64,000 nucleotides of DNA, from assembly GCA_965223725.1 (NCBI GenBank), contig CBDCXE010000003.1:305081-369080 (forward strand), in the 5' to 3' direction. Each line of letters starts with the position of its first letter. Positions within the stretch are counted from its first letter, which is position 1. The DNA is from CBDCXE01 sp965223725 [NCBI: Nitrospinota bacterium] (GTDB taxonomy: Bacteria > Nitrospinota_A > UBA7883). The notes under the pieces were generated by a model. The model was not told where the DNA came from and did not search any database. It saw only the letters and a list, made by a program, of their open reading frames with translations. Made by a program: the position numbers and the translations under genes. Shown here piece after piece: positions 44,020 to 64,000 of this stretch.

Positions 44020-44095
44020 GGGCGGATAGCTCAGCTGGGAGAGCGCCGGCCTTACAAGCCGGATGTCGGGGGTTCGATCCCCTCTCCGCCCACCA
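44020..44095 (+). tRNA. tRNA-Val (TAC), likely integration site
   Basis: A 76-base tRNA: acceptor GGGCGGA/TCCGCCC, D-arm AGCTCAGCTGGGAGAGC, anticodon stem CCGGC/GCCGG around loop CTTACAA (anticodon TAC), T-arm GGGGGTTCGATCCCCTC and an encoded CCA. A tyrosine recombinase gene starts 78 bases beyond on the opposite strand, pointing toward the tRNA, the classic layout for an element integrated at a tRNA 3' end. Confidence 0.97.
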
Positions 44096-44172: not shown

Positions 44173-45252
44173 TCATTTGTCCAGGGTTCCTACCAGCGCC
44201 CTCATTCTTTCATCCACCGGGTGGGTATACTTTCGGGTCATCCTGGGGTCGGAGTGACCGGCGATGTTTACCAAATCCCAGGTGGACGCGCCACGGGCGG
44301 CCAGATTCGACAAGCAAGTGTGGCGAAGATCGTGGAATCTTGCGCTGACCTTTGCCAACCTTGCCGCTCGCCGGAAAGCTTGAGAAGCAGAGTCTTTCTT
44401 GTACGGTTTTCCATTCTCATGCAAGAACACATACTCCGCGCTTTCCAATGGAACAACATTTCCTCTGTTCTGCCTGATCGACATTAACAGCTTGTACACG
44501 GTTTCGTTCATCGCAACCTTATGGCGTTTTCCATCGCCGGTCCCTTTGGCCACAACAGAAATAAAACGATTGGGAAAATCAATCTCCGACCATTTAAGGT
44601 TGATGATGTTCGACAGCCGAAGCGCAGTGTGCAGAGCCATCTCCACTATAGGAAGCATGGAGTCGGGCAGATGCTTTCTGATCCTGGAAAGATCATCACT
44701 GGAAACGTAGACTTCGCGAGAAGGATTCTGTTTTGGAAGTTTAAATTTCCGAAACGGTGTCTCTCTTAAAATCTCCCACTCTTCCACAGCGATTCTATAA
44801 GCATGCCGCAACAGCTTCAGGTCATGATAAATAGTGGTATTGGTCACTGGGCCGAGTATTCGCTTGCCAGATTTAATACCACCATCACGCCTTGCCTTCA
44901 CGAACCCAGAGAGATGTTTGGGCGAAAGTTTTGTCAGCTTGAAATTGCCTAATAGAACCTTCAGAACCTTGACGCTTGTTTCATCCCTGCTCCAGGATCG
45001 CTTGTTTTTCAAGCTGTGCTCTTCAAAATACCGGTCGAGAAGATCGCTCACGGTCAAGTAATCCCCCTTAACCTTCGTTTTAAACTTGCCTTCAATAACC
45101 TGCGCCTCTATCAAAACAGCTCTTTTCCTCGCTTCCTTCAGGTTGGATGTTTTCAAACTACGCCAAACAACCCGTCCATCAGGCAAATAGAACTTGCCAT
45201 ACCAAGATTTGCTTTTGCCTCCAGGCAGATTACGTTTATACACTCCTGCCAT
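44173..45252 (-). CDS. Phage-type tyrosine integrase
   Basis: A 359-residue tyrosine recombinase. An Arm-DNA/SAM-like N-terminal part (WYGKFYLPDGRVVWRSLKT and a core-binding helix bundle) is followed by the catalytic domain: first arginine in TALRLSNIINLKWSEID, then HDLRHTCLSNLAARG, and GHSDPRMTRKYTHP with the catalytic tyrosine. It would integrate and excise an element at the adjacent tRNA-Val. No matching second copy of the tRNA end was found in this window, so the far end of the element is presumably beyond 64 kb. Confidence 0.94.
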   Translation of the reverse strand: MAGVYKRNLPGGKSKSWYGKFYLPDGRVVWRSLKTSNLKEARKRAVLIEAQVIEGKFKTKVKGDYLTVSDLLDRYFEEHSLKNKRSWSRDETSVKVLKVLLGNFKLTKLSPKHLSGFVKARRDGGIKSGKRILGPVTNTTIYHDLKLLRHAYRIAVEEWEILRETPFRKFKLPKQNPSREVYVSSDDLSRIRKHLPDSMLPIVEMALHTALRLSNIINLKWSEIDFPNRFISVVAKGTGDGKRHKVAMNETVYKLLMSIRQNRGNVVPLESAEYVFLHENGKPYKKDSASQAFRRAARLAKVSARFHDLRHTCLSNLAARGASTWDLVNIAGHSDPRMTRKYTHPVDERMRALVGTLDK

Positions 45253-45307: not shown

Positions 45308-45559
45308 TCATATGGTTCTCTGCAAGACACCAGCGACCACTGAATCTCTGCCATCAAGAAATGCCTTTCGTGATTCCATAAATTCGTCCAGGTCATCGCG
45401 GTCAAATCGAAGGCATTTTCTTTTTTTCCTGGCCATCCCGAGGTTCGGCAAATCAATACACTTGATGAGTCCGGCTTTTACAATTTCATCAAAGTAGGTT
45501 GTGCCAACTTTCAGATATCGAGCGGCGCTTTTACGGTCCAAATATTTTTCATCATGCAT
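45308..45559 (-). CDS. Small helix-turn-helix protein, excisionase-like
   Basis: An 83-residue protein with a MerR/AlpA-like helix-turn-helix: YLDRKSAARYLKVGTTYFDE then VKAGLIKCI, followed by RFDRDDLDEFMESR, the usual helix-wing-helix ending of HTH-17 excisionases. It lies directly upstream of the integrase, in the same direction. It most likely controls excision direction. The reading-frame start at 45559 is the only reasonable one. Confidence 0.7.
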   Translation of the reverse strand: MHDEKYLDRKSAARYLKVGTTYFDEIVKAGLIKCIDLPNLGMARKKRKCLRFDRDDLDEFMESRKAFLDGRDSVVAGVLQRTI

Positions 45560-45611: not shown

Positions 45612-46493
45612 TTATCTCCGTGATCCCAGATATTGTGAGCTGATATGTTTTCGTGAGTGGCCTAGCTGATCGGAGATGTACCAGCAGGCTTTGTCTGCCA
45701 ATTCCTTCTGTTCTTTCGTCATCTCCTTGAAGCTGGGGCCGCCGCTGACTTTTGGTTCCAACCCGGTCATTTCCCGGTATGTTTTGTGGGCCCAGCCGTG
45801 GCGAAGGTCGTGGCTTTTTATCTCCAGAACTTTGCGGAGCGTGTCGTGGTAGCCGCGTAACCAGCTTTTCAACGATACCCCTTTCGGGATCAGACTTTTG
45901 TTACCGGTTCTTTTGGCATATTCATGGACCCGCTTTATCCAGTCGCGTTGCGCTTCATTATTAATGTCCAGGTTGCGTACCCTTCCGCTCTTGCACCAGC
46001 TCCCCATGAGCGCAAGATAGTTCCCACGATCAGCAAGCTCTATCTGAAACTTCAACGCCTCCTGCGCCCTGGTTCCGAACAACATCTGGCCTTCGACAGC
46101 AAGCCGATATTCTTCCTTCGGGATACGCTGAATCTGCTCAGGCGTGGGATAGGCTGATCTGTTTTCTATCGCATAATACCTCCTTGAACCTACCCCGTAT
46201 TCTGCATTAGTCTTGTGGACTATGTTCGCTTTACCGATCCCTTTGGCCAGTGAGCGAAGGAAGGACAGGTTGTTTTTAAGCGAGCCTGTGGAGCGTCCCT
46301 TGCCTTTTAAGTGTTCTACATATGCGCTGACCATTTTCGGTTTCAGAGCGGAAAGTTTTGGTAGCGACCGATAATTTTCTATCAGCCAGTTGGCGAACTT
46401 GTGCAGACCCACCTCCAGGTCATGCTGCCCGGCGTAGCTTCTGCGTTCACTGTTGTTAATAACTTTCTGTATCTCGGCTTTCAATCTGTGCAT
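45612..46493 (-). CDS. Integrase-domain protein (second tyrosine recombinase)
   Basis: A 293-residue protein of the integrase-like group often found on integrative elements, with a core-binding N-terminus and a catalytic-type C-terminus. Likely catalytic residues are the arginine in LFGTRAQEALKFQ, the HDLRHGWAHKTYRE box and the final LGHSRKHISSQYLGSRR with a tyrosine. It is unrelated in sequence to the first integrase. It may be for a separate element or act with the other recombinase. Confidence 0.8.
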   Translation of the reverse strand: MHRLKAEIQKVINNSERRSYAGQHDLEVGLHKFANWLIENYRSLPKLSALKPKMVSAYVEHLKGKGRSTGSLKNNLSFLRSLAKGIGKANIVHKTNAEYGVGSRRYYAIENRSAYPTPEQIQRIPKEEYRLAVEGQMLFGTRAQEALKFQIELADRGNYLALMGSWCKSGRVRNLDINNEAQRDWIKRVHEYAKRTGNKSLIPKGVSLKSWLRGYHDTLRKVLEIKSHDLRHGWAHKTYREMTGLEPKVSGGPSFKEMTKEQKELADKACWYISDQLGHSRKHISSQYLGSRR

Positions 46494-46561
46494 ACGGACC
46501 CTTCCCTTTATTGGCCTTCAAATATAAAAGTTAAGTGTTACTGCCAACCGATGATGCGGTC

Positions 46562-47413
46562 ATGGTCAGAGCCGGTTTGGACGTACCAAACGCGGTTGAC
46601 CATCGTCCGGTCCTTAGCCGGACGGGCCTCTAGCCTGGCCAAACAGGCCTCCGGGGCATGCCCGGATGCCAGCCCACAAGCGCTGGCGTTGGAGAATCGA
46701 GTAGCCGCTATCCCGATTACCGGATTTTTGCAAAGGCGCGCCGGTACGCGCGGATGAAAAATGGATTTGAACATTACTGATGGCCGACATGGTGGACGGC
46801 GATATGCGCTGTACACCGCGAGCTTGTGGAAATGCTCACACGCGGATTATTGTCAGCGCCAGGCAACTGCTAAGGTAGCTGCGGCTATAAAACTGTGCAT
46901 GCTCTGTTGAACATTCACAGGTAATAAAGATTAGGCGAAGGGTATCCAAAACCTTCGCAATGTTCGAATACGCCAACCCGCCGGTCGGCTGTTGACACGC
47001 GGGGCTATTACCCGCGCCCTTGGTCTTCGGAATAAACCCGAAGAGTGCTCATGCTGAGCGGAAGCATTAGATTAAATTTATAACCGTTGATGGAAAAATG
47101 CAAGTGGAAAAACGGTTTATTGCCGATGTTTTTTTGTTTATTTTTGAGGGGATGTCCGTCACGAACGCGAGCGAGAGCTAACCTGTTGGGTTACCTTTCA
47201 TTTGTACTGTTTTTTTCTTTCGTCACTCCACGCTTCGGCGCTAAACCGCACCTCCGCTACAGTGACGAAAGCAGACGTAGGTAGACGAGCGCGAAAGCAT
47301 GAGCTGACAACAAGCACCGCAAATGTTTCTTGCAAGTTTGTTGAGTTTGTTAGTTGACGCACCAATAAACCAGATCGAAACCTACTACACTTTCCATCGT
47401 GGAAAACGGTGCG
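46562..47413. ncRNA. Candidate large structured RNA: dense run of hairpins
   Basis: About 850 bases with no plausible protein but at least 14 local inverted repeats, one after another. Strong ones: 46562-46603, a compound stem of 16 pairs (ATGGTCA/TGACCAT outside, GTTTGG/CCAAAC inside); 46604-46624, CGTCCGG/CCGGACG; 46651-46665, CCGGG/CCCGG; 46668-46687, GCCAGC/GCTGGC; 46816-46845, CCGCG/CGCGG with an inner TGTG/CACA; 46935-46958, GCGAAGG/CCTTCGC; 46998-47016, CGCGGG/CCCGCG; 47024-47044, TCTTCGG/CCGAAGA; 47217-47271, an 11-pair stem; 47308-47343, CAACAA/TTGTTG; 47358-47413, CGCACC/GGTGCG enclosing TTTCCA/TGGAAA. Strand is undecided. No match to tmRNA, RNase P, SRP RNA, rRNA or group I/II introns was seen by eye. 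Large phage- or island-borne RNAs such as GOLLD are one possible class. Confidence 0.4.
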
Positions 47414-47596
47414 CAAAGTACAATCGTCCCCATTTTTTGGCGGTGCAAAGTTAATTCGCCATCAGTTAATCAGGCTAGATTTAACTTTCGTGCTCCAAAA
47501 TATCCATATGGAAAGAAACTGTAAGCCTCTCTTAAAATAGCACCGTTAGTAATTAGAGTTTTCCTGCATAATTTATTTTTGAAAGGAGAACTTTTC

Positions 47597-47668
47597 ATGA
47601 AGAGATCAAGATATAGTGAATTGCAGATAGTTGGGATTCTCAAGCAGGTAGAATGTGGTCACAAATAG
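47597..47668 (+). pseudogene. Remnant of an IS3-family transposase orfA
   Basis: A 23-codon frame starting MKRSRYSELQIVGILKQVE, the typical opening of IS3-family (IS2/IS51-like) OrfA proteins, then a premature TAG after GHK. An AAAGGAG ribosome site still lies before the ATG. The rest of the element is missing or unrecognisable. This shows older IS activity within the island, separate from the intact IS3 element downstream. Confidence 0.6.
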
Positions 47669-48182: not shown

Positions 48183-49052
48183 TTACACCATTTTCCCGGA
48201 CAGTTTAGTTAAGTTTAATTGCTTCTGTTGATTCATTTCAAGCTGCCGTCTTTTCCTCGGATTATGGAACCGTTCGATATAGTCAAAAATATCGGCCCTG
48301 GCCTCAGATCTTGTCCTGTAATATCGACGATTAATCCGTTCCCGTTTCAGCATCCCAAAGAAGCCTTCACAAGCTGCATTGTCAGCACAGCTACCGACAG
48401 CGCTCATACTACAGATCAGGTTATGGCCTTTCAGGAACCGCTGGTATTCATCACTGGTAAACTGGCAGCCTCGATCTGAATGCAAAATGACAGGTTCATG
48501 ATTTTTTCGATGCCATAAAGCCATCAATACCGCCTGGATGACCAGATCACGCGTCTGGCGGTGGTTCATCGACCAGCCAACCACAATACCTGAAAACAGA
48601 TCGATGACGACACACAGGTAAAGCCAGTTTTCTCCGGTGCGAATATAGGTAATATCCGTAACCCATTTGGTATTGGCCTGATCTGCCGTGAAATCGCGGT
48701 CCAGGTGATTACAGATGTCTGCTGGCCGCTGACCCACATCTTTCTTTTTCCAGCGCTTTTTCTGTGGGATGCCTTGCAGCTTATTGGCGCCCATCAGTCG
48801 AGCAACTCGATTAATACCGCAGGGTATACCCTGGTACTGCAGTTCCTCCCAGATACGTGGCGCACCCAGGACGCCGTCACTTTCCTTGTGTAGCGCTTTT
48901 ATTTGCTTGAACAGGGCATGATTGGCTATTGCCCGGTTACTTGGACCTCGTCCACGCCATTCATAATAGCCGCTGGGTGACACGTCAAGATGACGACACA
49001 TCATACGTACGGGAAAAGCATCGCGGCAACGATCAATCATCCGATACTTCAT
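48183..49052 (-). CDS. IS3-family transposase OrfB (integrase catalytic domain)
   Basis: A 289-residue DDE transposase subunit. It carries an HTH_21 segment (MCRHLDVSPSGYYEW) and the rve core: first aspartate in WVTDITYIRTGENWLYLCVV, second in VILHSDRGCQFTSDEY, glutamate in CEGFFGMLKRERINRR. It is made either from its own ATG at 49052, overlapping orfA by ATGA, or as an OrfAB fusion by a -1 slip at the T6A4 run near 49075. The catalytic residues look intact. Confidence 0.93.
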   Translation of the reverse strand: MKYRMIDRCRDAFPVRMMCRHLDVSPSGYYEWRGRGPSNRAIANHALFKQIKALHKESDGVLGAPRIWEELQYQGIPCGINRVARLMGANKLQGIPQKKRWKKKDVGQRPADICNHLDRDFTADQANTKWVTDITYIRTGENWLYLCVVIDLFSGIVVGWSMNHRQTRDLVIQAVLMALWHRKNHEPVILHSDRGCQFTSDEYQRFLKGHNLICSMSAVGSCADNAACEGFFGMLKRERINRRYYRTRSEARADIFDYIERFHNPRKRRQLEMNQQKQLNLTKLSGKMV

Positions 49053-49336
49053 TTCGATTCCTTCGCGAAGAACGCCGCCGCTTCTTTTAAAAAATCCCGT
49101 TCCTTTTTCACCCTGGCCAACTCTCTCTTCAGAGCAGCCATTTCTTCATCTCTGGCTTTGCCTTTTCCCATGAAAGCCTTGTCTCCATGTTCGCCCAGCT
49201 CTTTTCGCCAACGGCCCAGCATGCCAGGGTTTATACCCAGTTCTTCAGCCACCTGTTTTAGAGAGACGCCTGATTGATTAGCCAGATTAACCGCCTCTAA
49301 TTTAAACTCATCAGAGTATTTTCTTCGTTGTTGCAT
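49049..49336 (-). CDS. IS3-family transposase OrfA (helix-turn-helix)
   Basis: A 95-residue protein with an N-terminal helix-turn-helix (RRKYSDEFKLEAVNLANQSG, VSLKQVAEELGINPGMLGRW) and a C-terminal leucine-zipper-like coiled coil (ALKRELARVKKERDFLKEAA). It recognises the IS ends and dimerises with OrfB. Its end overlaps orfB by four bases. Confidence 0.93.
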   Translation of the reverse strand: MQQRRKYSDEFKLEAVNLANQSGVSLKQVAEELGINPGMLGRWRKELGEHGDKAFMGKGKARDEEMAALKRELARVKKERDFLKEAAAFFAKESK

Positions 49337-49435: not shown

Positions 49436-52400
49436 TGATCATCCCCACGTGTGTGGGGAACACGACTGCGGCCCATTCCAACCTGGACTCGCTGAAGGTT
49501 CATCCCCACGTGTGTGGGGAACACGAGGATTTGATCAACCAGGCTGTCGAAGAGACAGGTTCATCCCCACGTGTGTGGGGAACACGCTCTTTTCCTGATA
49601 TTAACGTTGATAGTAATAGGTTCATCCCCACGTGTGTGGGGAACACGTCCCGCCAACAAACTGGTTAGCCACAAGCGCAGGTTCATCCCCACGTGTGTGG
49701 GGAACACGCTCTTTTCCTGATATTAACGTTGATAGTAATAGGTTCATCCCCACGTGTGTGGGGAACACGATATATGTACTGTGCTTAGTTGGTTTGTCAT
49801 AGGTTCATCCCCACGTGTGTGGGGAACACTTTTACCGGCGTGCCTTGAACCTCCGTTGGGAAGGTTCATCCCCACGTGTGTGGGGAACACCGAAAACTCG
49901 TCTGGCGAATGCCGCCCTGATTAGGTTCATCCCCACGTGTGTGGGGAACACGCAGAGTCAGGCAAAAGCGAGCGGATGATAGAAGGTTCATCCCCACGTG
50001 TGTGGGGAACACAATAGATAAGTTCCCATCGGTTCTGTTGGAACAGGTTCATCCCCACGTGTGTGGGGAACACACATATAATGATAGAGTGATGATCACT
50101 CACCTAGGTTCATCCCCACGTGTGTGGGGAACACAGTTGCGCCAAGCGCTGAAAAGCGGGTTTAATAGGTTCATCCCCACGTGTGTGGGGAACACAAACA
50201 AACCGGGATGAGTGGCACAACAGGAACAGGTTCATCCCCACGTGTGTGGGGAACACATTAAATGGGCGTCCATACAATACCACTAATTAGGTTCATCCCC
50301 ACGTGTGTGGGGAACACTCTCGTAAGTGCCAATCGGCCGTTAATATTGCAGGTTCATCCCCACGTGTGTGGGGAACACAGCTGTTTTGCGTAAGGGCTGA
50401 TATCGTTAGCAGGTTCATCCCCACGTGTGTGGGGAACACTTACTAGCATCGATTGATTGCAATACTTGCAAAAGGTTCATCCCCACGTGTGTGGGGAACA
50501 CGCCATTGCTTGTCTCCTTTGGTTTTGGTTTAAAGGTTCATCCCCACGTGTGTGGGGAACACGCGTAATCCAGGCTGACATCGGCGATATAAGGAGGTTC
50601 ATCCCCACGTGTGTGGGGAACACCCGTCATTCACCAGCGCCCTCGGTACTGGTTGCGGTTCATCCCCACGTGTGTGGGGAACACGATTTACCAATTCCAT
50701 CAGGATCGCAGGTAGTAGGTTCATCCCCACGTGTGTGGGGAACACATTCCTTCAGCATCCCCAACATGACATAATCCAGGTTCATCCCCACGTGTGTGGG
50801 GAACACGCCGCGCCCGTTAATGTGCCGGTTATATGAATAGGTTCATCCCCACGTGTGTGGGGAACACGCCGCAGACCCGGCTTTCTGATGTTTCTCTAGC
50901 GGTTCATCCCCACGTGTGTGGGGAACACAGTATCATTAGCATTATCACTAACTAAAGATAAGGTTCATCCCCACGTGTGTGGGGAACACACGTTATCGTT
51001 GGCATCAACCTTGGCAACCACAGGTTCATCCCCACGTGTGTGGGGAACACCCTCGAATTTACTACCTGTTTTAAGTAATTTAAGGTTCATCCCCACGTGT
51101 GTGGGGAACACTCTTTTTCGTGATTGGTTATGATGTCCTGATACGGTTCATCCCCACGTGTGTGGGGAACACACGCAGTGGTTGAGGGTTGCTCATGATG
51201 ATAAAGGTTCATCCCCACGTGTGTGGGGAACACTTTGGATACATGGCTTGGTTCGGAATCATTGAAGGTTCATCCCCACGTGTGTGGGGAACACTTTCAG
51301 TTAACTTTTTAGAAAAAAAGGTCGTGAGGTTCATCCCCACGTGTGTGGGGAACACACTATCAACTCTGGCTTACCGTGGGCGGGAATAGGTTCATCCCCA
51401 CGTGTGTGGGGAACACTCCTCTTCCAGCAATGGCATAGGCAGCTCCCATGGTTCATCCCCACGTGTGTGGGGAACACTCAGGGATGACGTGACGGAAAAA
51501 GGTAAAGTGCGGTTCATCCCCACGTGTGTGGGGAACACAGGTATTAACATGTCAGGAGTGATTGAGGATTAGGTTCATCCCCACGTGTGTGGGGAACACA
51601 ACACGAGCCAGGCAAAGCCACCGTGATGAAAAGGTTCATCCCCACGTGTGTGGGGAACACTCAGCATCATGTCCGCCCGCTCCAGTTGCGGCAAGGTTCA
51701 TCCCCACGTGTGTGGGGAACACTCTTTATCCCAACAAGTCCATGATGGCTCAAAAGGTTCATCCCCACGTGTGTGGGGAACACTTTTTCTGCACTTCAAC
51801 AAGCTGATCTTTCAAAGGTTCATCCCCACGTGTGTGGGGAACACCTAAACACCCTGAATACTGTTGAGAGGATGTTAGGTTCATCCCCACGTGTGTGGGG
51901 AACACGGTTGTTTTTCCTTTCTCTCTCGTTACAGTGAAGGTTCATCCCCACGTGTGTGGGGAACACTTACCTGATCACTGGTTAATGTTTGATTGAAAAG
52001 GTTCATCCCCACGTGTGTGGGGAACACGTTACAATGGAAGAAAAGGCGGTAACAAATAAAGGTTCATCCCCACGTGTGTGGGGAACACCAGCGACTCCTT
52101 GTCTCTGATCTCGGTTGCAAAGGTTCATCCCCACGTGTGTGGGGAACACCCAACCAGCTTTGCCGCGATCAGCATCTCGATAGGTTCATCCCCACGTGTG
52201 TGGGGAACACGAACTGGAAAATGATGAAAGGGCAAGGTTTTCAGGTTCATCCCCACGTGTGTGGGGAACACGACGAATACGACGAAAAAACCGGCCACTA
52301 CATAGGTTCATCCCCACGTGTGTGGGGAACACCTCTCCGCCTACGACAACACCCCGGAAGAGCTAGGTTCATCCCCACGTGTGTGGGGAACACATGAGCG

Positions 52401-55712: not shown

Positions 55713-56931
<1,219 letters not shown>

Positions 56932-56943
56932 CAGTTGTGTATC

Positions 56944-57624
56944 TTAATGCTTGCGCACCATCAGCATTCCGCAACCAAACCCTTTGGCAGGACCAATCCC
57001 CTGATAAAGCGCGGTCAGGAACTTGTCCGGGTTGGTGACGGTCAGGGCGCCAGTAAGATCAATGGTGCTGATGGATATATTCTTTTTCCCTTTTCCTTTA
57101 TACAGTGTCCTTTGGGTATAGCTGTCAGCCATGATACGGTTCTTGTCCACAGAGAACCCGTTAATATTGGCCCGTTTAATCAGCCAGTCTACGGCCTGTT
57201 CATGGGCGATTTCGTTTTTAGTGGGCCATTCATTTTTCGGGATGCCGCTATTCTCCAGCCGTTTCTTTTCGTCCATGACGATATCATGGCGTTTATGTTT
57301 GCCGTGCTCATCCCGTCGGGTGCGTACTGGATTAACGCGCAGTTTGAATGAAAGATGCATACCATCCGTAAGTTGCGGGTTGTATTCTTTTGTTTCTAGC
57401 TTCCATATATATTCTGTGTCGTTTGGTGGTTTGCCGGAAACAACATATATTCTGGGCCAGCGGCTGCACTCGTCGATATGATAAATAAAGCTGCGCTGGC
57501 TGCCATTGCCGGTACCAAACAGCTTCCAGATATGCTGGTGAACAGAATAGCCACCATCTTTTGAAACTCGTCTGTAGGTGTGTCGATTAACGTCGCGATT
57601 GAGGGTTAACCTGCTGAAATACAT
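56944..57624 (-). CDS. cas6e: CRISPR RNA endonuclease Cas6e
   Basis: A 226-residue Cas6e (Cse3/CasE), which cuts the pre-crRNA at the repeat hairpin and stays bound. Two ferredoxin-like folds are seen; likely catalytic residues are Y26 and H29/H31 (YSVHQHIWKLF), and the glycine-rich loop GIGPAKGFGCGMLMV lies near the end. It starts 13 bases upstream of cas1 and 3 bases after cas5e. The frame is intact. Confidence 0.95.
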   Translation of the reverse strand: MYFSRLTLNRDVNRHTYRRVSKDGGYSVHQHIWKLFGTGNGSQRSFIYHIDECSRWPRIYVVSGKPPNDTEYIWKLETKEYNPQLTDGMHLSFKLRVNPVRTRRDEHGKHKRHDIVMDEKKRLENSGIPKNEWPTKNEIAHEQAVDWLIKRANINGFSVDKNRIMADSYTQRTLYKGKGKKNISISTIDLTGALTVTNPDKFLTALYQGIGPAKGFGCGMLMVRKH

Positions 57625-57627
57625 AAT

Positions 57628-58371
57628 TCACTCCTCTTTATTATTCCTGACGCTGGTGTAATGTTCCTGCCGGTTCATGAATTGCCAGCGTGTCCGGCTT
57701 ATGGGCGTATCGCGTCTTGTATTGGTATGGGTCACCACAAGGCCTGACAGATCCGGATCAGCCGGCTCCTCCCAGTAGTAGTGGAAGATATTACCTTTAT
57801 CGAATTCGGGTAATAACTGATCTCCCCTGAATTTTGATAGTTCAAAAGCTTCCTTGATTGTTATAGCTGAAACGAGCTGTGGATCGAGGGGCAGCGCCAG
57901 TGGACACGATTTTCTGCCAAGGTAAAGAGTAAAGACAGGGTTTGTCAGCCTTGCCTTTAATTCAGATAGAGAATAAGCGGCAGCTTCATTTTTTGTCCAG
58001 ACGCATGCTGTGGAGAAAGCGTCACAATAGTAATCACGGGAAGAGAGGACCGTCCCAACTTTTTCCGCCGCCAGTTCTTCCCTGCGTGTATAAAACTTTA
58101 CGCCACGCTTTGCTTCTGGAACCTGGGCGGTGTGATAATCCTGCAGCAGGGTTCCGGGGCTGGTAACACGGAAAGCTGTAGCGTAGGAATCGCTTAGCTC
58201 TGCATGGCGTTCCTCTTCATCACGTTTTATACCAAGGGCGGCGGCGATCAGGCCGAGTATGGCGGAACGGGATGGCTGCGCGATTGATGGGCGACGCTCT
58301 CCCACTGCAATGTCACCCCAGGAAGCCATGGGGCCATATAACCAGAAAACCAGAAACTCACGCATCGTCAA
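57628..58371 (-). CDS. cas5e: Cascade subunit Cas5e
   Basis: A 247-residue Cas5e (CasD), which binds the 5' handle of the crRNA. The start REFLVFWLYGPMASWGDIAV and ERRPSIAQPSRSAILGLIAA are characteristic, as is DYHTAQVPEAKRGVKFYTRR. The frame overlaps the cas7e end by 14 bases. It looks intact. Confidence 0.94.
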   Translation of the reverse strand: MTMREFLVFWLYGPMASWGDIAVGERRPSIAQPSRSAILGLIAAALGIKRDEEERHAELSDSYATAFRVTSPGTLLQDYHTAQVPEAKRGVKFYTRREELAAEKVGTVLSSRDYYCDAFSTACVWTKNEAAAYSLSELKARLTNPVFTLYLGRKSCPLALPLDPQLVSAITIKEAFELSKFRGDQLLPEFDKGNIFHYYWEEPADPDLSGLVVTHTNTRRDTPISRTRWQFMNRQEHYTSVRNNKEE

Positions 58372-59431
58372 TGCCCCCTTTTACGAAGTCAACAATATCC
58401 TGCAGGCAGCCGGTTCCATCATGGGTGTTCATCACGCATGTTTCGCTCTCGGTCAGGCCGTACGCCTTGTCCATTTTTTCTTTCGTGTCCATCAGTTGTT
58501 TGATAGATGAATCCATCAGGTCCGTTCCGTTGGTAGGTTTCAGATAGGCGACAGAGAGAGAACGCGGCTGGTAATCGCCCTTTTCAGCGAGAATGTATGA
58601 CGCATGGGCGCGTGACGCAAAACTGTTCTGCTTGCCCGTAGGCGAGACAGTGGCGGCGCATTCGGCCAGGGCGGCGATGGTTCGTTTTGCAAGGTCCACA
58701 TCATCGCTGAGGTTCTCCCGCAACAGGTTGCAATCGACACATATGTACAGATAGTAAAGGCCAGCCGCGAACTCAGTCTCGCCGATATGCGCGGCGCCCA
58801 TATCGTCTTCGTTCAGGTTCAGGTCGTCAACCGCGGTGAAATAGTCATCTTCCGCCGCCACTTTATGGACAGTGATTGCGTGGGCCACCTGCACAGCCGC
58901 TTCGGTATTATATTTAGGAGAGCTGGCCAGCATGCGCCCAAACATGGCGATGTCAGCCGATTTATGCTCTTCGCGCAACAGCTCCAGGTCATCATCGGTA
59001 GGCCCTTCACCTGTTTCTGCCAGCTTTTCGACCAGGTCGTCTATACCCGCCTGTTCTTTCACGCTGAAATGAGCCAGTTGCTCCAGCGCAAGATCCTTTA
59101 CCTCTTTTTCTTTTTTTTCAGCCGATACAACTTTTCCAAATACATTTGCGATTTGCCAGGCCCATCTTAGCGCTTGTTTTTCTTTCACACCTTTTTCAAT
59201 TAAAGATTCATATGCTTCTATTCCCATTCTTTTCGTTCTGGTCCCTACATGACCCTTTAAAGTCGCCTCAAACGGTTCGGATGTGCGCCAGGCGCGTTTG
59301 AGGCTTTGCGAGGAGACCCGCATTCTGTTTGCGCCACCCATGACCGCCGACTTGGGGCGGCCCAGATCATCACGGTTGAGGTTGGAGGGTGGATACGATG
59401 TTAAAAGATGCAGTTGGGTAAATCTGGACAT
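58358..59431 (-). CDS. cas7e: Cascade backbone subunit Cas7e
   Basis: A 357-residue Cas7e (CasC/Cse4), six copies of which form the Cascade backbone on the crRNA. The start LHLLTSYPPSNLNRDDLGRP and GGANRMRVSSQSLKRAWRTS are the family hallmarks; GAAHIGETEFAAGLYYLYIC and TGKQNSFASRAHASYILAEK follow. It is intact and starts 26 bases after cse2. Confidence 0.96.
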   Translation of the reverse strand: MSRFTQLHLLTSYPPSNLNRDDLGRPKSAVMGGANRMRVSSQSLKRAWRTSEPFEATLKGHVGTRTKRMGIEAYESLIEKGVKEKQALRWAWQIANVFGKVVSAEKKEKEVKDLALEQLAHFSVKEQAGIDDLVEKLAETGEGPTDDDLELLREEHKSADIAMFGRMLASSPKYNTEAAVQVAHAITVHKVAAEDDYFTAVDDLNLNEDDMGAAHIGETEFAAGLYYLYICVDCNLLRENLSDDVDLAKRTIAALAECAATVSPTGKQNSFASRAHASYILAEKGDYQPRSLSVAYLKPTNGTDLMDSSIKQLMDTKEKMDKAYGLTESETCVMNTHDGTGCLQDIVDFVKGGIDDA

Positions 59432-59457
59432 TATTTTCTCCTTGGTTTAGATATTGG

Positions 59458-59964
59458 TTAATCCGCTGTTGGCGCGGCGCCGTAATAGTCATACGCCATC
59501 TGTTTTTTAGTTCGCTCGTTCCACCAGTAGACGACGCGGGCCAGGTCGATCACGTTCAGTTTGTTATCAAGAAGATGAACAACGCGGATCATATCCCGGT
59601 AAAGATCGGTATGTGATTGATGTTTGATAAGATGGCGGAACCGCAGACCACTAAGCCGCGCCTTGTCGGCGCCCTGTTTTGACTGCGCCATCTGCTCGGC
59701 GAGTGACGAGCCGGGGATGTGCTGTTTTACATGGGCCAATATCCCGGCCAGCGCCGCTGAACCATTTTCGTATACGGCGCCATGCTGTTTCAGCTCTCGC
59801 CAAAGTTCATGATACGCCTCTGTGAATACAATTTCGTCGAGGCTTTTACATCGGCGCAGTTGGGCCCGGTCACCACGCTTTTGGTCAAGCCCGTTCCACC
59901 AGCTCAACAGCTCCTTTGCTTCAGCGCTATCACTTTCGAATTTCAGGTAAGTCGTTTCAGTCAT
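59458..59964 (-). CDS. cse2: Cascade small subunit Cse2 (Cas11e)
   Basis: A 168-residue all-helical Cse2 (CasB). The segments LLSWWNGLDQKRGDRAQLRR and LSGLRFRHLIKHQSHTDLYR match the family, as does the C-terminal VIDLARVVYWWNERTKKQM. Two copies hold the non-target strand in Cascade. It overlaps the end of cas8e by 8 bases. The frame is open. Confidence 0.92.
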   Translation of the reverse strand: MTETTYLKFESDSAEAKELLSWWNGLDQKRGDRAQLRRCKSLDEIVFTEAYHELWRELKQHGAVYENGSAALAGILAHVKQHIPGSSLAEQMAQSKQGADKARLSGLRFRHLIKHQSHTDLYRDMIRVVHLLDNKLNVIDLARVVYWWNERTKKQMAYDYYGAAPTAD

Positions 59965-61571
59965 TATTCTCCACCTCCTTTTTCTTCATTTTTTTAGATT
60001 TTTCAGGTTTGGGCAGGCCCAGCAATTCTGTGACGATCTTATGTTTGTGGTTGAATTTTTGAAGGTCCCGGCGAGCTCTTGAAATACGTTTAGGGTCGGA
60101 ATATTCGATAGGGGAACTTAATACCACATCGTCGAAAAGCTTGATAGAGGCCTCCAACAGTCGCGCATGCCAGCTTTTTCGCAGATCGACAGTTTCGTTT
60201 CCACTTTCCAGTTCAGCCTTCAGCTTGGAAAGTGTGTCATAGAAATCTGGTTCTGTGGCGGACCAGAATGACCGATCGATGAACGATGTATCCCCTTTGG
60301 CGTCGCCCGGTCTTTTGAACCAGGCCTTTTTTACACAGCTTTTCAGGTTGCTGGCGACCTCCTTTGCTGAATTTACCAGCCGTAAAACCAGGTCTTCATA
60401 TTCATCCCTGATTGCGGCATCGACGTTGATAATTGGCATGCGCCCTTCGTACCAGCACTTTATTTTCGCCTTGCCAGGCTCTATATCACAACCAAACGCC
60501 CAGAGCCGATATTGGTACCCCTCCTGCGAAGCAATATCAATCCTCTCGCTTTCCAGAAACTGCGCAATTACCTTTGCCGGAGTTTTTGTCTGCTTTTTGT
60601 TAGTGGAGTCGTTATAAACAAGTCCAAGCCAGTGCTTGTAATCCAGGGTTCCGGGGGTTTTAATGGCCAGAAGGCCCTTTTCCGAATGATTATAGGGTGA
60701 AAGTGGATGGAACCATTGGTCGGAGTAGTTGATGCCGCCAGGACGAGTGTAAAATTCTTTTACTAAGCTGTTATGCTCATTGTTGCATAATGTGCATGGA
60801 GCATGTGGATTTTCTGATCTGATTATATAAATCCTTCTGGGCATCCCCCAAAATAAGTGCGCCGGAACAGCGTCTTCTGGTGTGATTTCGCGCTTTACTG
60901 CGGACCAATTAAAACTGTTCGGTTCAAGCCATGGAAAATACTTGCTACAGTATCCATTTTTTCGACTTTTTTTGTCGAAAGAACTGGCAATGATAGTATT
61001 CATCCATATGGTATGCCAAAGATTATTACCTAGTATAATGCTGGTTAATGGCCCTCCGCCCCGTATTGAGACGCGGTGGCCTGCTCCACCCACTGGGAGA
61101 GTTTGTCTGTAAAGTCATTATAGCGGCAGAACAGCATGACAAACACATCCTGTACATTGGCTTATTCTTTTCGAAGTGGCCTTGCGGTTCGTTAATCAGA
61201 AGGTTATCGATGGATTTATTTGAATCATTTTTCAATTCTTTCAATACTGTTCCATCCTGCATGAATCGAGGGCCGTCGCCGTCTAGGTTGAACGCGTGGG
61301 ATACCGGCGCAAACTTTGTGGCCAGCTCTTCCGGCGTCGGTGGCTCTGTGAACCAGTCGTACCAATGGTCCTCGTCTTCCGGTGGAGTCGCTGTCTGGAC
61401 CAGGCCTATCAGGAACTGGATCATGGCGCCGTTGAAATCGGGCCGCGGGAAATCGAGCGCCGTGACCGGATTGTCCAGATCGCTTGTGACTTGACTGGGC
61501 GCTATTTTATCGCGCATGCCGCTGCGTCGCCGAACAGGTATCCATTGTTCATTGATAAGGTTGAACACCAT
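59957..61571 (-). pseudogene. cas8e: Cascade large subunit Cas8e (Cse1), frameshifted
   Basis: Cas8e (CasA) recognises the PAM and recruits Cas3. The first part (61571 leftward) is normal: FNLINEQWIPVRRRSG, MCLSCCSAAIMTLQTNSPSG. It then shifts at about 61085: the family sequence GGAGHRVSIRGGGPLTSII continues in the next frame through 59957. The span of 1,615 bases is one more than a multiple of three, fitting a single inserted base near the GGGTGG at 61083-61088. The original frame stops about 20 codons later. The second frame has the CTLCNNEH zinc-type pair and runs to cse2. Either a real mutation or a sequencing error; if real, PAM recognition and Cas3 recruitment are lost. Confidence 0.9.
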
Positions 61572-64000
61572 TACTCTTCTCCTTCTTTTTTTATTTCGAA
61601 GCCCGTCTCCATCGAATATTTCACATGCACAGTTTTGTCATTTCCATCTGTCGCTTTTCCGTACCAGTCGCTGTCGTATCCTTTTTTCATTGGAATTAAC
61701 ACGCTCCATCTTCCTTTATCTGGCATGCTCTCCTTTGCTGTTTTCACCGCTTGCATGAGCATTTGGTTTTCGTGATCAGCCTCTTTGCTGATCAACGCTT
61801 GCCTGACACTGAGCTGGCTCATCTGCCATGGGTGGTGATCCTTATCGCGCCACGGTCTTAGATGATTGTTGACCCACTTGCCCAGGCGTACAGTTGTCTG
61901 GATTTCGCCCAGTCGGGTAACAGCTTTGGTATCATCTATCCATTGCGATTCGGTTGCCTTGTATCCTTCGTCGAGATCAAGTTCCGCCGCTTTTGCCAGC
62001 GAGCGCTCCGCCATTATCTGGCCGTACGCTTCATTAGCGTTATCAGCCAGCCCTTCAGGAACCGGCATGTCTGTGCCATAGATTTGCTCTATCATACTGC
62101 GCGAGTCATCCGGCGTGGTCCATCCGCCCATGGTTTTCAATAGCCGTGATGTGAGCCACAATTTCGCGTGATCTGGATAAACATAAGCCGCTTTTGAAAA
62201 CATCGATCTGTACCAGTCACCCCCTGGGTCCTCAACAGGGTCAGGGCCATACACAACAAGCAGAGGCTTGCCCCTTTGATCTTCTGCATCCGGGTCCAGC
62301 AAGTTACCTTTGTCGTCCCGCGCATGGCGACAAAGCCGCCCGGCGCGCTGTATCAAAAGGTCAATGGGGCGAGGTCCGACACAACCAGGTCGAAATCAAG
62401 ATCAAGCGACTGCTCCACCACCTGGGTGGCGATCAATACCTTGCCGCTGCGGATGTTCTCGTTGCTATCTTTACCGAACCTTCCAAGTGCGTCCTTCTCG
62501 ATATCGAGTCTGTCGCCCATGGCGAATCTGGCGTGAAAAAGATATACATTTTCCGGGTTGAGCATTTTCTGCAGATTTTCATAAGCTACGACAGCGTCTG
62601 AAACAGTGTTCCTGATCCATAACACACAATTGCCAGACCGCGCTCTGCCTAGTATGTGGCTATGTACATCGAATATATCTTCTGTAAGTTCGACTTTTAC
62701 GCTCCTCCGATTTCTTTTGCTTGATTCCACAGCTGTTTGTCCGGTATTGTTCCGGGACACCTGCGTTATCAAAGGATACCCGTCGGCAAGAGCCGCAGGA
62801 TCAATCTGTAAATCACCGTTCTGATAACCAGTGATCAATTGAGCTCGAACATTTTTTGGTAAAGTCGCAGACAGAATGATCGCGCTTCCACCAAGAGCAG
62901 CGTGAAATGAAAGCAACGCCTTTAATAATTGCGTCATATAATCATCGTAGGCGTGAGCTTCATCAACTATAAGTACCTTTGAAGCGAGCCCGATCAACCT
63001 TAAGGATTGATGTTTTGACGCCAGTATTGACAGTAGCGCCTGATCGATAGTGCCAACGCCTATATTCGCCAGAAACGACTTTTTGTTGCTGTCTGCGATC
63101 CATGCAGAGCACTGGGCGGCAGCTGAAGGCTCATCTTTGCCATAATTGGCGCTATCATCATCTGAATAGTCAAGTATAGATGCACGAAATTCTTCTAAAA
63201 GTTTACTGCCGCCGTGGGCCAAGGCCAGCGAAGGAGAGCTGCTCTCTGTGTATAATTTTCTATAGCTCTGCGCCAGCCGCCCATACATTGCGTTGGATGT
63301 GGCCATGGTGGGCAGGGCTATATATATGCCATCCGCCTGACCCCTGGCCATGATGCGATGCGCCAGAACCAGCGCTGCTTCGGTTTTGCCTGATCCTGTT
63401 ACATCTTCCACAATGAACAGCTGTGGGACCTGATACATATCGCACCTTTCGGCCTCTAGCTGTGCTGGACTGAGTTTGTCGAAGTTAAACAACCTGGCTG
63501 CGCCGGTCCGCTGCGAAACCTGGGATGGCAGGATACCAGATTTTTCAATCGCTTTGACAGCGTTCGGTAGGGCTGTATCATGCCAGTAGTCATCTATTGA
63601 AGTATGGTCAGATTTATACTGAAAATACCTCCGGTCAGAACCTATCCAGTCACACAATACAGAGAGGCCTGCCATGAGCCAGGAAGCTCGTTTAACACGT
63701 TTCAGCAACACCTTTGGATCGGGCAAGTGTGACGTCTGATTATGTGCGAGCAGTAATTCGGCTGATTGCGTTGCGAACTGCTCTGCTGATGAAATGTCCT
63801 CCTCCGTATAGTGGAGCCTGTACTTTACCGGGGGGTTGTTGGAAGGAGGTTTGCCGTGATGACCGGTAACCGGCTGGGCGAAATAATCGAACACTCTTTT
63901 CCATTGGCGTTCGGTTCCAGCTTCTGTTTCCTTTATGCCAAGCCAGTTTTTTTCATATAAAACCTTCCACAAATGCTGGCGCCAGAATGCGTAACCCAGG
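61571..64000 (-). pseudogene. cas3: CRISPR helicase-nuclease Cas3, frameshifted, cut by window edge
   Basis: Cas3 unwinds and degrades DNA found by Cascade. Visible parts are the end of the HD nuclease domain (VTGHHGKPP), then the helicase: Walker A VTGSGKTEAALV, DEAH box VLIVDEAHAYDDYM, motif III ILSATLPKNV and motif V EQSLDLDFDLVVSDLAP. The frame then breaks at about 62360: the next frame continues with QRAGRLCRHARDD (motif VI) to 61571. The length fits one missing base in CCCCATTGACC, where CCCCAATTGACC would restore the frame. The HD-domain start lies beyond the window. Its stop overlaps the cas8e start as TAATG. Confidence 0.9.

What the first reader, a model, noticed from the sequence alone, without database searches (positions are those of the whole stretch)
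46562..47413. About 850 bases of hairpins with no gene: candidate large structured RNA on the island
Seen in sequence: at least 14 perfect or near-perfect inverted repeats follow one another, including a compound 16-pair stem (46562-46603), three 7-pair stems (46604-46624, 46935-46958, 47024-47044), an 11-pair stem (47217-47271) and a nested pair (47358-47413). Coding frames here are short and unlike any protein. Random DNA would not give so many closed stems in series. I infer a large structured RNA; its place next to two recombinases and a tRNA suits RNAs carried by phages and islands, but I recognise no known class.
Basis: partly seen in the sequence, partly recalled or inferred. Interest (0 to 1): 0.72.

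Follow-up and report, generated by a model that had tools for sequence, protein, structure and literature searches.

The report
Structured RNA beside a recombinase's hairpin
Next to a DNA-cutting enzyme gene on a mobile island lies a conserved, folded, apparently non-coding RNA and a precisely conserved DNA hairpin; relatives sit on many small plasmids, and together they may be an overlooked way for DNA to move between bacteria.

Summary
Window 46530-47440 has no recognisable gene, matches no Rfam family and folds better than shuffles on both strands, more so on the MINUS strand (z -8.0; plus -5.5). A 74%-identical relative lies upstream of the same gene in a related bacterium. Minus-strand pairs are kept by paired changes (11 against 3.9 expected). 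So 'structured RNA' is supported; it most likely runs from about 47070 down to 46530, towards the tyrosine-recombinase gene 45612-46493.

That PF12834 recombinase shows what the region is. Of 31 loci examined, window included, 25 have one inverted repeat GTCAYT...ARTGAC 386-1,111 nt upstream; its outer five pairs change letters but stay paired in 120 of 125 cells. A motif AAMACTNAHC marks the RNA's 3' end. On plasmids a conjugation coupling protein follows the enzyme in 11 of 22 loci (8 of them Acinetobacter), yet 83 of 113 plasmids with relatives are typed non-mobilizable.

Best reading: a mobilization module (hairpin as oriT, recombinase as relaxase, RNA as relaxosome component), analogous to Salmonella Genomic Island 1 with MpsA and its essential sgm-sRNA. 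Transcription and transfer are inferred, not shown. Strong RNA folding is limited to part of the family.

The parts
45612..46493 (-). Tyrosine recombinase of the PF12834 kind, 293 aa, with residues R142, K168, H228, R231, H279 and Y288; candidate relaxase (Mob protein)
   Evidence: Pfam; residues invariant or nearly so in the alignment of 17; reading them as the catalytic set is established knowledge of tyrosine recombinases
46530..47070 (-). Structured, apparently non-coding RNA of about 540 nt (5' end near 47070, 3' end near 46530); ends inferred
   Evidence: sense fold z -5.5; 74% identity to L001; sense-strand compensating changes; no Pfam, no Rfam
46530..46539 (-). 3' motif AACACTTAAC (family form AAMACTNAHC), beginning 46 nt before the recombinase start
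   Evidence: within 260 nt of the gene in 23 of 31 loci; rare elsewhere
46543..46550 (-). 3' strand of a possible long-range closing stem with 46982-46989; competes with the local hairpin 46972-46989
   Evidence: read from sequence: GCCGACCG/CGGTTGGC here, GCCGACCG/CGGTCGGC in L001; inference
46562..46624 (-).
   Evidence: in the predicted folds of both strands
46935..46958 (-). Hairpin, paired also in L001 with changed letters
46972..46989 (-). Hairpin GCCGACC/GGTTGGC (GGTCGGC in L001, still paired)
46998..47045 (-). Two hairpins of the 5' domain (46998-47016, 47024-47045), also present in a second, partial copy in the relative's genome
47073..47104 (-). Promoter-like stretch CTTGCA ... TATAAATTTA, kept in L001; weak match to the sigma-70 consensus
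   Evidence: not found by the consensus scan
47156..47168 (-). Second core-like box GCGTTCGTGACGG between hairpin and promoter
   Evidence: identical in L001; CGTGAC-like boxes seen by eye in several plasmids
47217..47271 (-). Inverted repeat CTTTCGTCACT ... AGTGACGAAAG: candidate origin of transfer or recombination site
   Evidence: such a repeat in 25 of 31 loci, chance <= 0.003 each, 0 of 18 downstream controls; outer pairs covary, 120 of 125
44173..45252 (-). Phage-type integrase next to tRNA-Val (44020-44095), presumably the island's integrase
   Evidence: PF00589 E 2.4e-30; tRNA
45308..45559 (-). Small helix-turn-helix protein, excisionase-like
   Evidence: PF12728; TIGR01764 'excise' below its cut-off

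Best explanation
The region is the 5' part of a mobilization module of an integrated island. A hairpin with near-invariant core GTCACT/AGTGAC (47217-47271) is where the tyrosine recombinase 45612-46493 binds and nicks, i.e. an oriT. A structured RNA is transcribed from just inside the hairpin towards the recombinase gene, ends near the AAMACTNAHC motif, and acts as a cofactor or scaffold that joins recombinase, hairpin and the coupling protein of a conjugation system. Shown: conservation, hairpin covariation, strand-biased conservation of the window RNA's pairs, 3' motif, linkage to the recombinase, and on some plasmids linkage to coupling-protein genes. Inferred: transcription, nicking, transfer, and any action of the RNA.
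For: Homologue with the same order and 74% identity. Pairs of the window's sense fold in L001: 11 double changes kept (null 3.9, P 0.0002), 26 broken (null 40.8, 0 of 5,000); antisense weaker. Hairpin in 25 of 31 loci, 0 of 18 downstream controls; outer pairs Watson-Crick in 120 of 125 cells against 48 +- 7 with arms shuffled. 3' motif within 260 nt of the gene in 23 of 31 loci. Coupling-protein-type gene within two genes downstream in 11 of 22 annotated plasmid loci (Pfam on three). Plasmid records pSIO1, pIEC338SC2 and pAhaem5227a list such a coupling protein and no relaxase (PLSDB's gene table may be incomplete). Precedent: SGI1 needs an RNA encoded between oriT and the tyrosine-recombinase-type mpsA (PMC9299015); MobK nicks oriT DNA, oriT lying upstream of its gene (PMC8152469).
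Against: Unlike MobK, TcpM and MpsA, this protein keeps an N-terminal core-binding domain, as ordinary recombinases do. No coupling protein was seen near the recombinase in the window, L001 or L045, nor in 11 of 22 plasmid loci; 8 of the 11 that have one are related Acinetobacter plasmids. Some relatives sit beside another relaxase (MobA/MobL in L019) or on plasmids typed conjugative. Without the hairpin the interval has sense z <= -3 in only 7 of 18 loci, and in L024 the antisense strand folds better (-5.1 against -2.9). The Shewanella pair L024/L028 favours the antisense strand in one direction. The 5'-domain model finds nothing outside the window and the relative's genome. L047-L049 lack the hairpin, L045 has only its 6-bp core. 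The relative's recombinase is frameshifted.
Confidence: 0.5

Rival explanations
1. Site-specific recombination unit: the hairpin is a folded attachment or resolution site (compare integron attC, recalled) for the recombinase, used for plasmid multimer resolution or insertion; the RNA is the recombinase's 5' leader.
For: Catalytic residues and core-binding domain intact; one such hairpin per upstream region; loop length varies 9-132 nt, as in folded recombination sites.
Against: Coupling-protein genes as neighbours in 11 of 22 plasmid loci; the window, L001 and L045 have a second, ordinary integrase beside it.
Confidence: 0.27
2. Cis-regulatory leader: the RNA is only the long 5' untranslated region of the recombinase mRNA and regulates its synthesis.
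For: Same strand and directly upstream; alternative pairings of the 46982-46989 stem could switch.
Against: In Acinetobacter L038, L040 and L044 the 3' motif (one letter off in L038) is separated from the recombinase by a further annotated gene. In Shewanella L024 and L028 a terminator-like hairpin lies between motif and gene, though the L028 region gives no more such sites than its shuffles. A partial copy of the RNA's 5' end stands without a recombinase in L012.
Confidence: 0.15
3. Structure matters as single-stranded DNA: hairpins on the transferred strand serve as priming or conversion sites.
For: Hairpins conserved; conjugation transfers a single strand (established knowledge).
Against: A promoter of 11 of 12 consensus positions (GTGACA-16-TATAAT) sits just inside the hairpin in L020 and is largely kept in the 11 Acinetobacter loci.
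Confidence: 0.08

Closest known systems
SGI1 mobilization region: oriT, sgm-sRNA, MpsA/MpsB (PMC9299015, PMC6414798)
   Same: Island; tyrosine-recombinase-type Mob protein; inverted-repeat oriT and an RNA of hundreds of nt encoded between oriT and the Mob gene
   Different: MpsA lacks a core-binding domain and has MpsB; no sequence comparison with SGI1 was made here; sgm-sRNA is shown essential, this RNA is untested
MobK and oriT of plasmid pIGRK (PMC8152469)
   Same: Tyrosine-recombinase-like Mob on a small plasmid; oriT in the intergenic region just upstream, with inverted repeats
   Different: MobK lacks core-binding and arm-binding domains; no RNA in the sections I read; minimal oriT 186 bp
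TcpM / MOBM relaxases (PMC12857230, passages)
   Same: Relaxase derived from tyrosine recombinases
   Different: Clostridial conjugative plasmid pCW3; other recombinase residues dispensable there
Large phage and island RNAs (GOLLD, ROOL, HEARO, OLE; recalled)
   Same: Long structured RNA on mobile DNA
   Different: No Rfam match in the region
Integron integrase with attC sites (recalled)
   Same: Tyrosine recombinase with a hairpin site of variable loop
   Different: One site per upstream region, other core, no array of cassettes seen

Membership tests
Tyrosine recombinase, PF12834/PF12835 | N-terminal SAM-like core-binding domain | tested here: met
   PF12834 33.9 bits, cut-off 22
Tyrosine recombinase, PF12834/PF12835 | Catalytic R...K...HxxR...H/W...Y | tested here: met
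   R142, K168, H228, R231, H279, Y288
Tyrosine recombinase, PF12834/PF12835 | PF12835 catalytic-domain match | tested here: inconclusive
   met in L020 and L045; not listed for the window protein, which has a weak PF00589 match, E 0.09
Tyrosine-recombinase-type relaxase (MOBM, MobK, MpsA) | No core-binding domain | tested here: not met
   PF12834 present
Tyrosine-recombinase-type relaxase (MOBM, MobK, MpsA) | Nicks an oriT upstream of its gene and is needed for transfer | not testable with these tools
   only a candidate hairpin
sgm-sRNA of SGI1 | Sequence or structure homology | not tested
sgm-sRNA of SGI1 | RNA encoded between oriT and the recombinase-type Mob gene | tested here: inconclusive
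   same order of parts, but oriT and transcription unproven
Rfam families incl. GOLLD, ROOL, HEARO, OLE, group I/II introns | Covariance-model score over gathering | tested here: not met
   for the region; in the relatives scanned no match over gathering in the upstream intervals

The most novel reading that the evidence does not exclude
A widespread, undescribed RNA-dependent DNA-transfer module: a complete tyrosine recombinase turned relaxase, a covarying hairpin oriT and an obligate non-coding RNA that works in the relaxosome, found on islands and on small plasmids now typed as non-mobilizable across several proteobacterial families and a Nitrospirota-like lineage.
Probability: 0.28. Interest if true: 0.87.

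Novelty: new variant of a known kind. Interest (0 to 1): 0.66.

Why it matters
If right, it would explain how small plasmids with a coupling protein but no recognised relaxase move, give typing tools an oriT signature (GTCAYT hairpin plus AAMACTNAHC) to search, and make the puzzle of SGI1's essential RNA testable in a second system. Even if the mechanism is different, a recombinase family with a fixed-core, covarying hairpin and a linked non-coding RNA was not found described in the nine paper searches made (most subscription papers are not in that library).

Tried and rejected
Rfam classes: no match in the region; the PAGEV RNA on pSIO1 lies about 1.4 kb from the recombinase and is another element. 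DNA similarity of the region in plasmids and phages: only short matches, the best of them to what looks like an IS remnant outside the RNA. Two exact conserved strings in viral contigs: none; the window recombinase alone in viral contigs: none. Island end by a direct repeat of the tRNA: none found up to 64000. Covariance model of the 5' domain over 28 sources: only its own three sequences. RNAalifold of the Acinetobacter RNA gave a weak consensus. A hand-written structure was out of register for helices 4 and 5; it is not used. The promoter scan does not support the window promoter. Phage records: no relative of the recombinase.

Rows left out. IR and motif test (31 loci including the window): L029, L034, L046 and L050 were not used because the sequence begins less than 300 nt before the gene; L021 and L027 were used as one locus, pD74. 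L039's recombinase is not in its record; an assumed start (3939) was used. L017 was left out of the protein alignment (its range held the stop codon), L001 because it is frameshifted, L032-L034 as remote. Coupling-protein count (22): without L017 (record unannotated), L027 (same plasmid as L021), L039, and the remote L032-L034, none of which shows one; with those three it is 11 of 25. In L044 only one downstream gene lies in the stretch. One search counts loci already known to have the core (26; 25 distinct). The motif was formulated from the first loci, so its count is partly circular; of four later viral loci two have it (L045, L048), two do not (L047, L049).

Full report
OBSERVATION. The stretch 46530-47440 folds better than all 20 dinucleotide shuffles on the plus strand (z -5.5) and more so on the minus strand (z -8.0). 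The open frames there match no Pfam family, and no Rfam family reaches its gathering score in the region or comes close at E <= 10. It lies between the recombinase 45612-46493(-) and insertion-sequence debris; tRNA-Val is at 44020-44095 and a second, ordinary integrase at 44173-45252(-).

HOMOLOGUE. A scan of species genomes with the recombinase gave one locus, L001, from a MAG labelled Nitrospirae. The recombinase is 79% identical in the best segment, and the DNA between hairpin and gene 74% identical. The window comes from the same broad lineage: its PtsI is 65% identical to that genome's, the best by E-value of 24 genomes of the phylum. Of those 24 genomes only that one has the recombinase. 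It also holds a second, partial copy: the promoter-like stretch and first hairpins alone, behind a GmrSD/Schlafen-domain gene.

STRAND AND STRUCTURE. I folded the RNA of one species on each strand and asked how its base pairs fare in the other, against 5,000 permutations of the substitutions among paired positions. From the window fold, sense (window minus) strand: 11 pairs changed on both sides and stayed paired (expected 3.9, P 0.0002), 26 broke (expected 40.8, none of 5,000 as low). Antisense: 13 (6.3, P 0.004) and 50 (58.0, P 0.019). From the L001 fold, sense: 8 (2.8, P 0.003) and 30 broken (39.1, P 0.0004); antisense: 6 (3.1, P 0.07) and 33 (32.7, P 0.61). On the sense strand substitutions are rarer at paired sites (76 of 368) than at unpaired ones (77 of 226). 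This favours an RNA made towards the recombinase gene; a single DNA strand of the same sequence is not excluded.

THE FAMILY. tblastn of the recombinase finds relatives in 113 plasmid records, at under 60% identity, and in no phage record. MOB-suite typing, as given by PLSDB, of the 113 non-mobilizable, 20 conjugative and 10 mobilizable. I fetched annotated regions chosen along that ranking and from one DNA search with an Acinetobacter locus, and six loci from viral contigs, four of them with upstream DNA. In the first ten plasmids, seven have an annotation-free gap of 569 to at least 1,207 nt upstream of the gene (L018, L019, L020, L022-L025); L026 and pD74 have a small hypothetical ORF there, and L017's record is unannotated.

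HAIRPIN. In 25 of 31 loci with upstream DNA, the window included, there is an inverted repeat of at least 10 bp with core GTCAYT/ARTGAC, 386-1,111 nt before the gene; shuffled versions of each sequence gave it in at most 1 of 300 trials, and the 1,400 nt downstream of the gene in 0 of 18 loci. The six misses are L032 and L033 (remote relatives, 28-29% identical) and the viral-contig loci L045, L047, L048 and L049; L045 has the bare 6-bp core pair 822 nt upstream. Over 25 distinct hairpins (L045 included) the five pairs outside the core are Watson-Crick in 120 of 125 cells, against 48 +- 7 (largest 78) when right arms are shuffled among loci; positions 2 and 3 show all four Watson-Crick types. 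A core that hardly changes, with flanks that change only in pairs, is what a folded recognition site looks like. Eleven of these loci are related Acinetobacter plasmids; the pattern also holds in Rhizobiaceae, Pasteurellaceae, Shewanella, Vibrio, Legionella, Halioglobus, Pseudolysobacter, an IncP plasmid and the two islands.

PROMOTER AND 3' MOTIF. In the Acinetobacter group a largely conserved GTGACA-16-TATAAT (11 of 12 consensus positions in L020) starts just inside the hairpin and points to the gene; its first half overlaps a repeat of the core (CGTGAC). The window has CTTGCA...TATAAATTTA at the corresponding place, too weak for the consensus scan. A motif AAMACTNAHC lies within 260 nt of the gene in 23 of 31 loci. 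Of the eight misses, L038, L039, L040 and L044 have it, or one letter off, further upstream; L032 and L033 lack it; L047 and L049 lack the exact form. In 150,807 bases of 23 plasmid, island and viral loci it occurs 26 times in sense and 2 times in antisense; 23 of the 26 are the copies before the gene, so elsewhere it is rare on both strands. In L038, L040 and L044 an annotated gene stands between motif and recombinase, and in L024 and L028 a terminator-like hairpin does (the L028 region has no more such sites than its shuffles). The motif thus seems to belong to the RNA unit rather than to the start of the recombinase mRNA.

LIMITS OF THE RNA CLAIM. For 600 nt upstream of the gene, hairpin included in most, sense z was -5 or lower in 6 of 11 loci. 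Taking only the interval from hairpin to motif, sense z is -3 or lower in 7 of 18 loci (window -5.5, L001 -5.3, L017 -5.2, L045 -5.1, L030 -3.7, L047 -3.6, L022 -3.3) and 0 of 7 control stretches; the other eleven, from Rhizobiaceae, Acinetobacter, Vibrio, Shewanella, the IncP plasmid and L049, lie between -0.2 and -2.9, and in L024 the antisense strand is stronger (-5.1). Eighteen pairwise compensation tests, not independent, gave fewer broken pairs than the null at P < 0.05 in 8 on the sense and 3 on the antisense strand; the sense support comes from window/L001, Acinetobacter pairs and L019/L031 one way, while L018 pairs show none and the Shewanella pair favours antisense one way. A covariance model of the 5' domain finds only its own three sequences in 28 sources. 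So a strongly folded RNA is established for the window's own lineage and likely in a few others; for the rest of the family the conserved things are hairpin, 3' motif and, in Acinetobacter, promoter.

CONTEXT AND MECHANISM. In 11 of 22 annotated plasmid loci a coupling-protein-type gene lies within two genes downstream of the recombinase (L018, L020, L023, L029, L036, L037, L038, L040-L043; eight of these are Acinetobacter). Pfam confirms it in the three tested (TrwB_AAD_bind, T4SS-DNA_transf, TraG-D_C; DUF87 in L018). Three plasmid records (pSIO1, pIEC338SC2, pAhaem5227a) list it and no relaxase; PLSDB's gene table may be incomplete. Three islands share the order hairpin (only its core in L045) - noncoding interval - recombinase - integrase - tRNA (window; L001, its integrase in two frames; L045). 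I therefore read the unit as a mobilization module. The nearest precedent is SGI1, where an RNA encoded between oriT and mpsA, a tyrosine-recombinase-type gene, is essential for transfer (PMC9299015: abstract, first part of the introduction, and passages read), with MobK as a demonstrated nuclease and relaxase of that type (PMC8152469: abstract, first part of the results, and the discussion read). Seen only as passages: PMC6414798, PMC9769806, PMC11389934, PMC11104534, PMC12857230. The protein differs from MobK, TcpM and MpsA in keeping a core-binding domain, so it is not filed as a MOBM member; that it works like one is the inference.

NOVELTY. Nine searches of the paper library found no description of this recombinase family as a relaxase, of its hairpin or of its RNA. 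One paper notes the PF12834/PF12835 gene beside mcr-4.3 on the plasmid of L028 and suggests a role of phage integrases in moving that gene (PMC9769806, passages); another lists PF12835 among enzymes of marine elements classed as non-conjugative (PMC11104534, passage). Most subscription papers are not in that library.

Noticed in passing
window 49434 to about 55620; genes 56011-63972(-): A very long CRISPR array (about 100 repeats at 61-nt spacing) with Cas1 and Cas3 genes lies just beyond the island's IS element; type I-E by my own reading. The 92-nt stretches at 49556 and 49678 are identical, so a spacer is duplicated. Whether it is cargo of the island is unknown.
   Followed up: partly
window 48183-49336 and about 47598-47665: A two-ORF IS transposase (rve and HTH_Tnp_1 domains; IS3-like by recall) and, nearby, the first residues of a second such ORF (MKRSRYSELQIVGILKQVECG, by eye).
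   Followed up: no
L012:4638-4735: A lone copy of the RNA's promoter-like stretch and first hairpins follows a gene with GmrSD_N and Schlafen AlbA_2 domains, with no recombinase beside it.
   Followed up: partly
window 46972-46989 and 46543-46550: The strand GCCGACCG can pair with a neighbouring GGTTGGC or with a second CGGTTGGC about 430 nt downstream, next to the 3' motif; both options are kept in L001, as in a switch.
   Followed up: partly
L023:348-565: PAGEV RNA (RF03037) on pSIO1, a 4.9-kb plasmid on which no replication protein is listed.
   Followed up: no
L030:2136-3831: Legionella plasmid with two overlapping recombinase genes in tandem; the first is diverged (15% identical to the window's) and lacks some catalytic motifs.
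   Followed up: no
L022, L025 and L028: The unit occurs on plasmids that also carry resistance genes (sul2 and catA3; blaSHV and aph(6)-Id; mcr-4.3).
   Followed up: no
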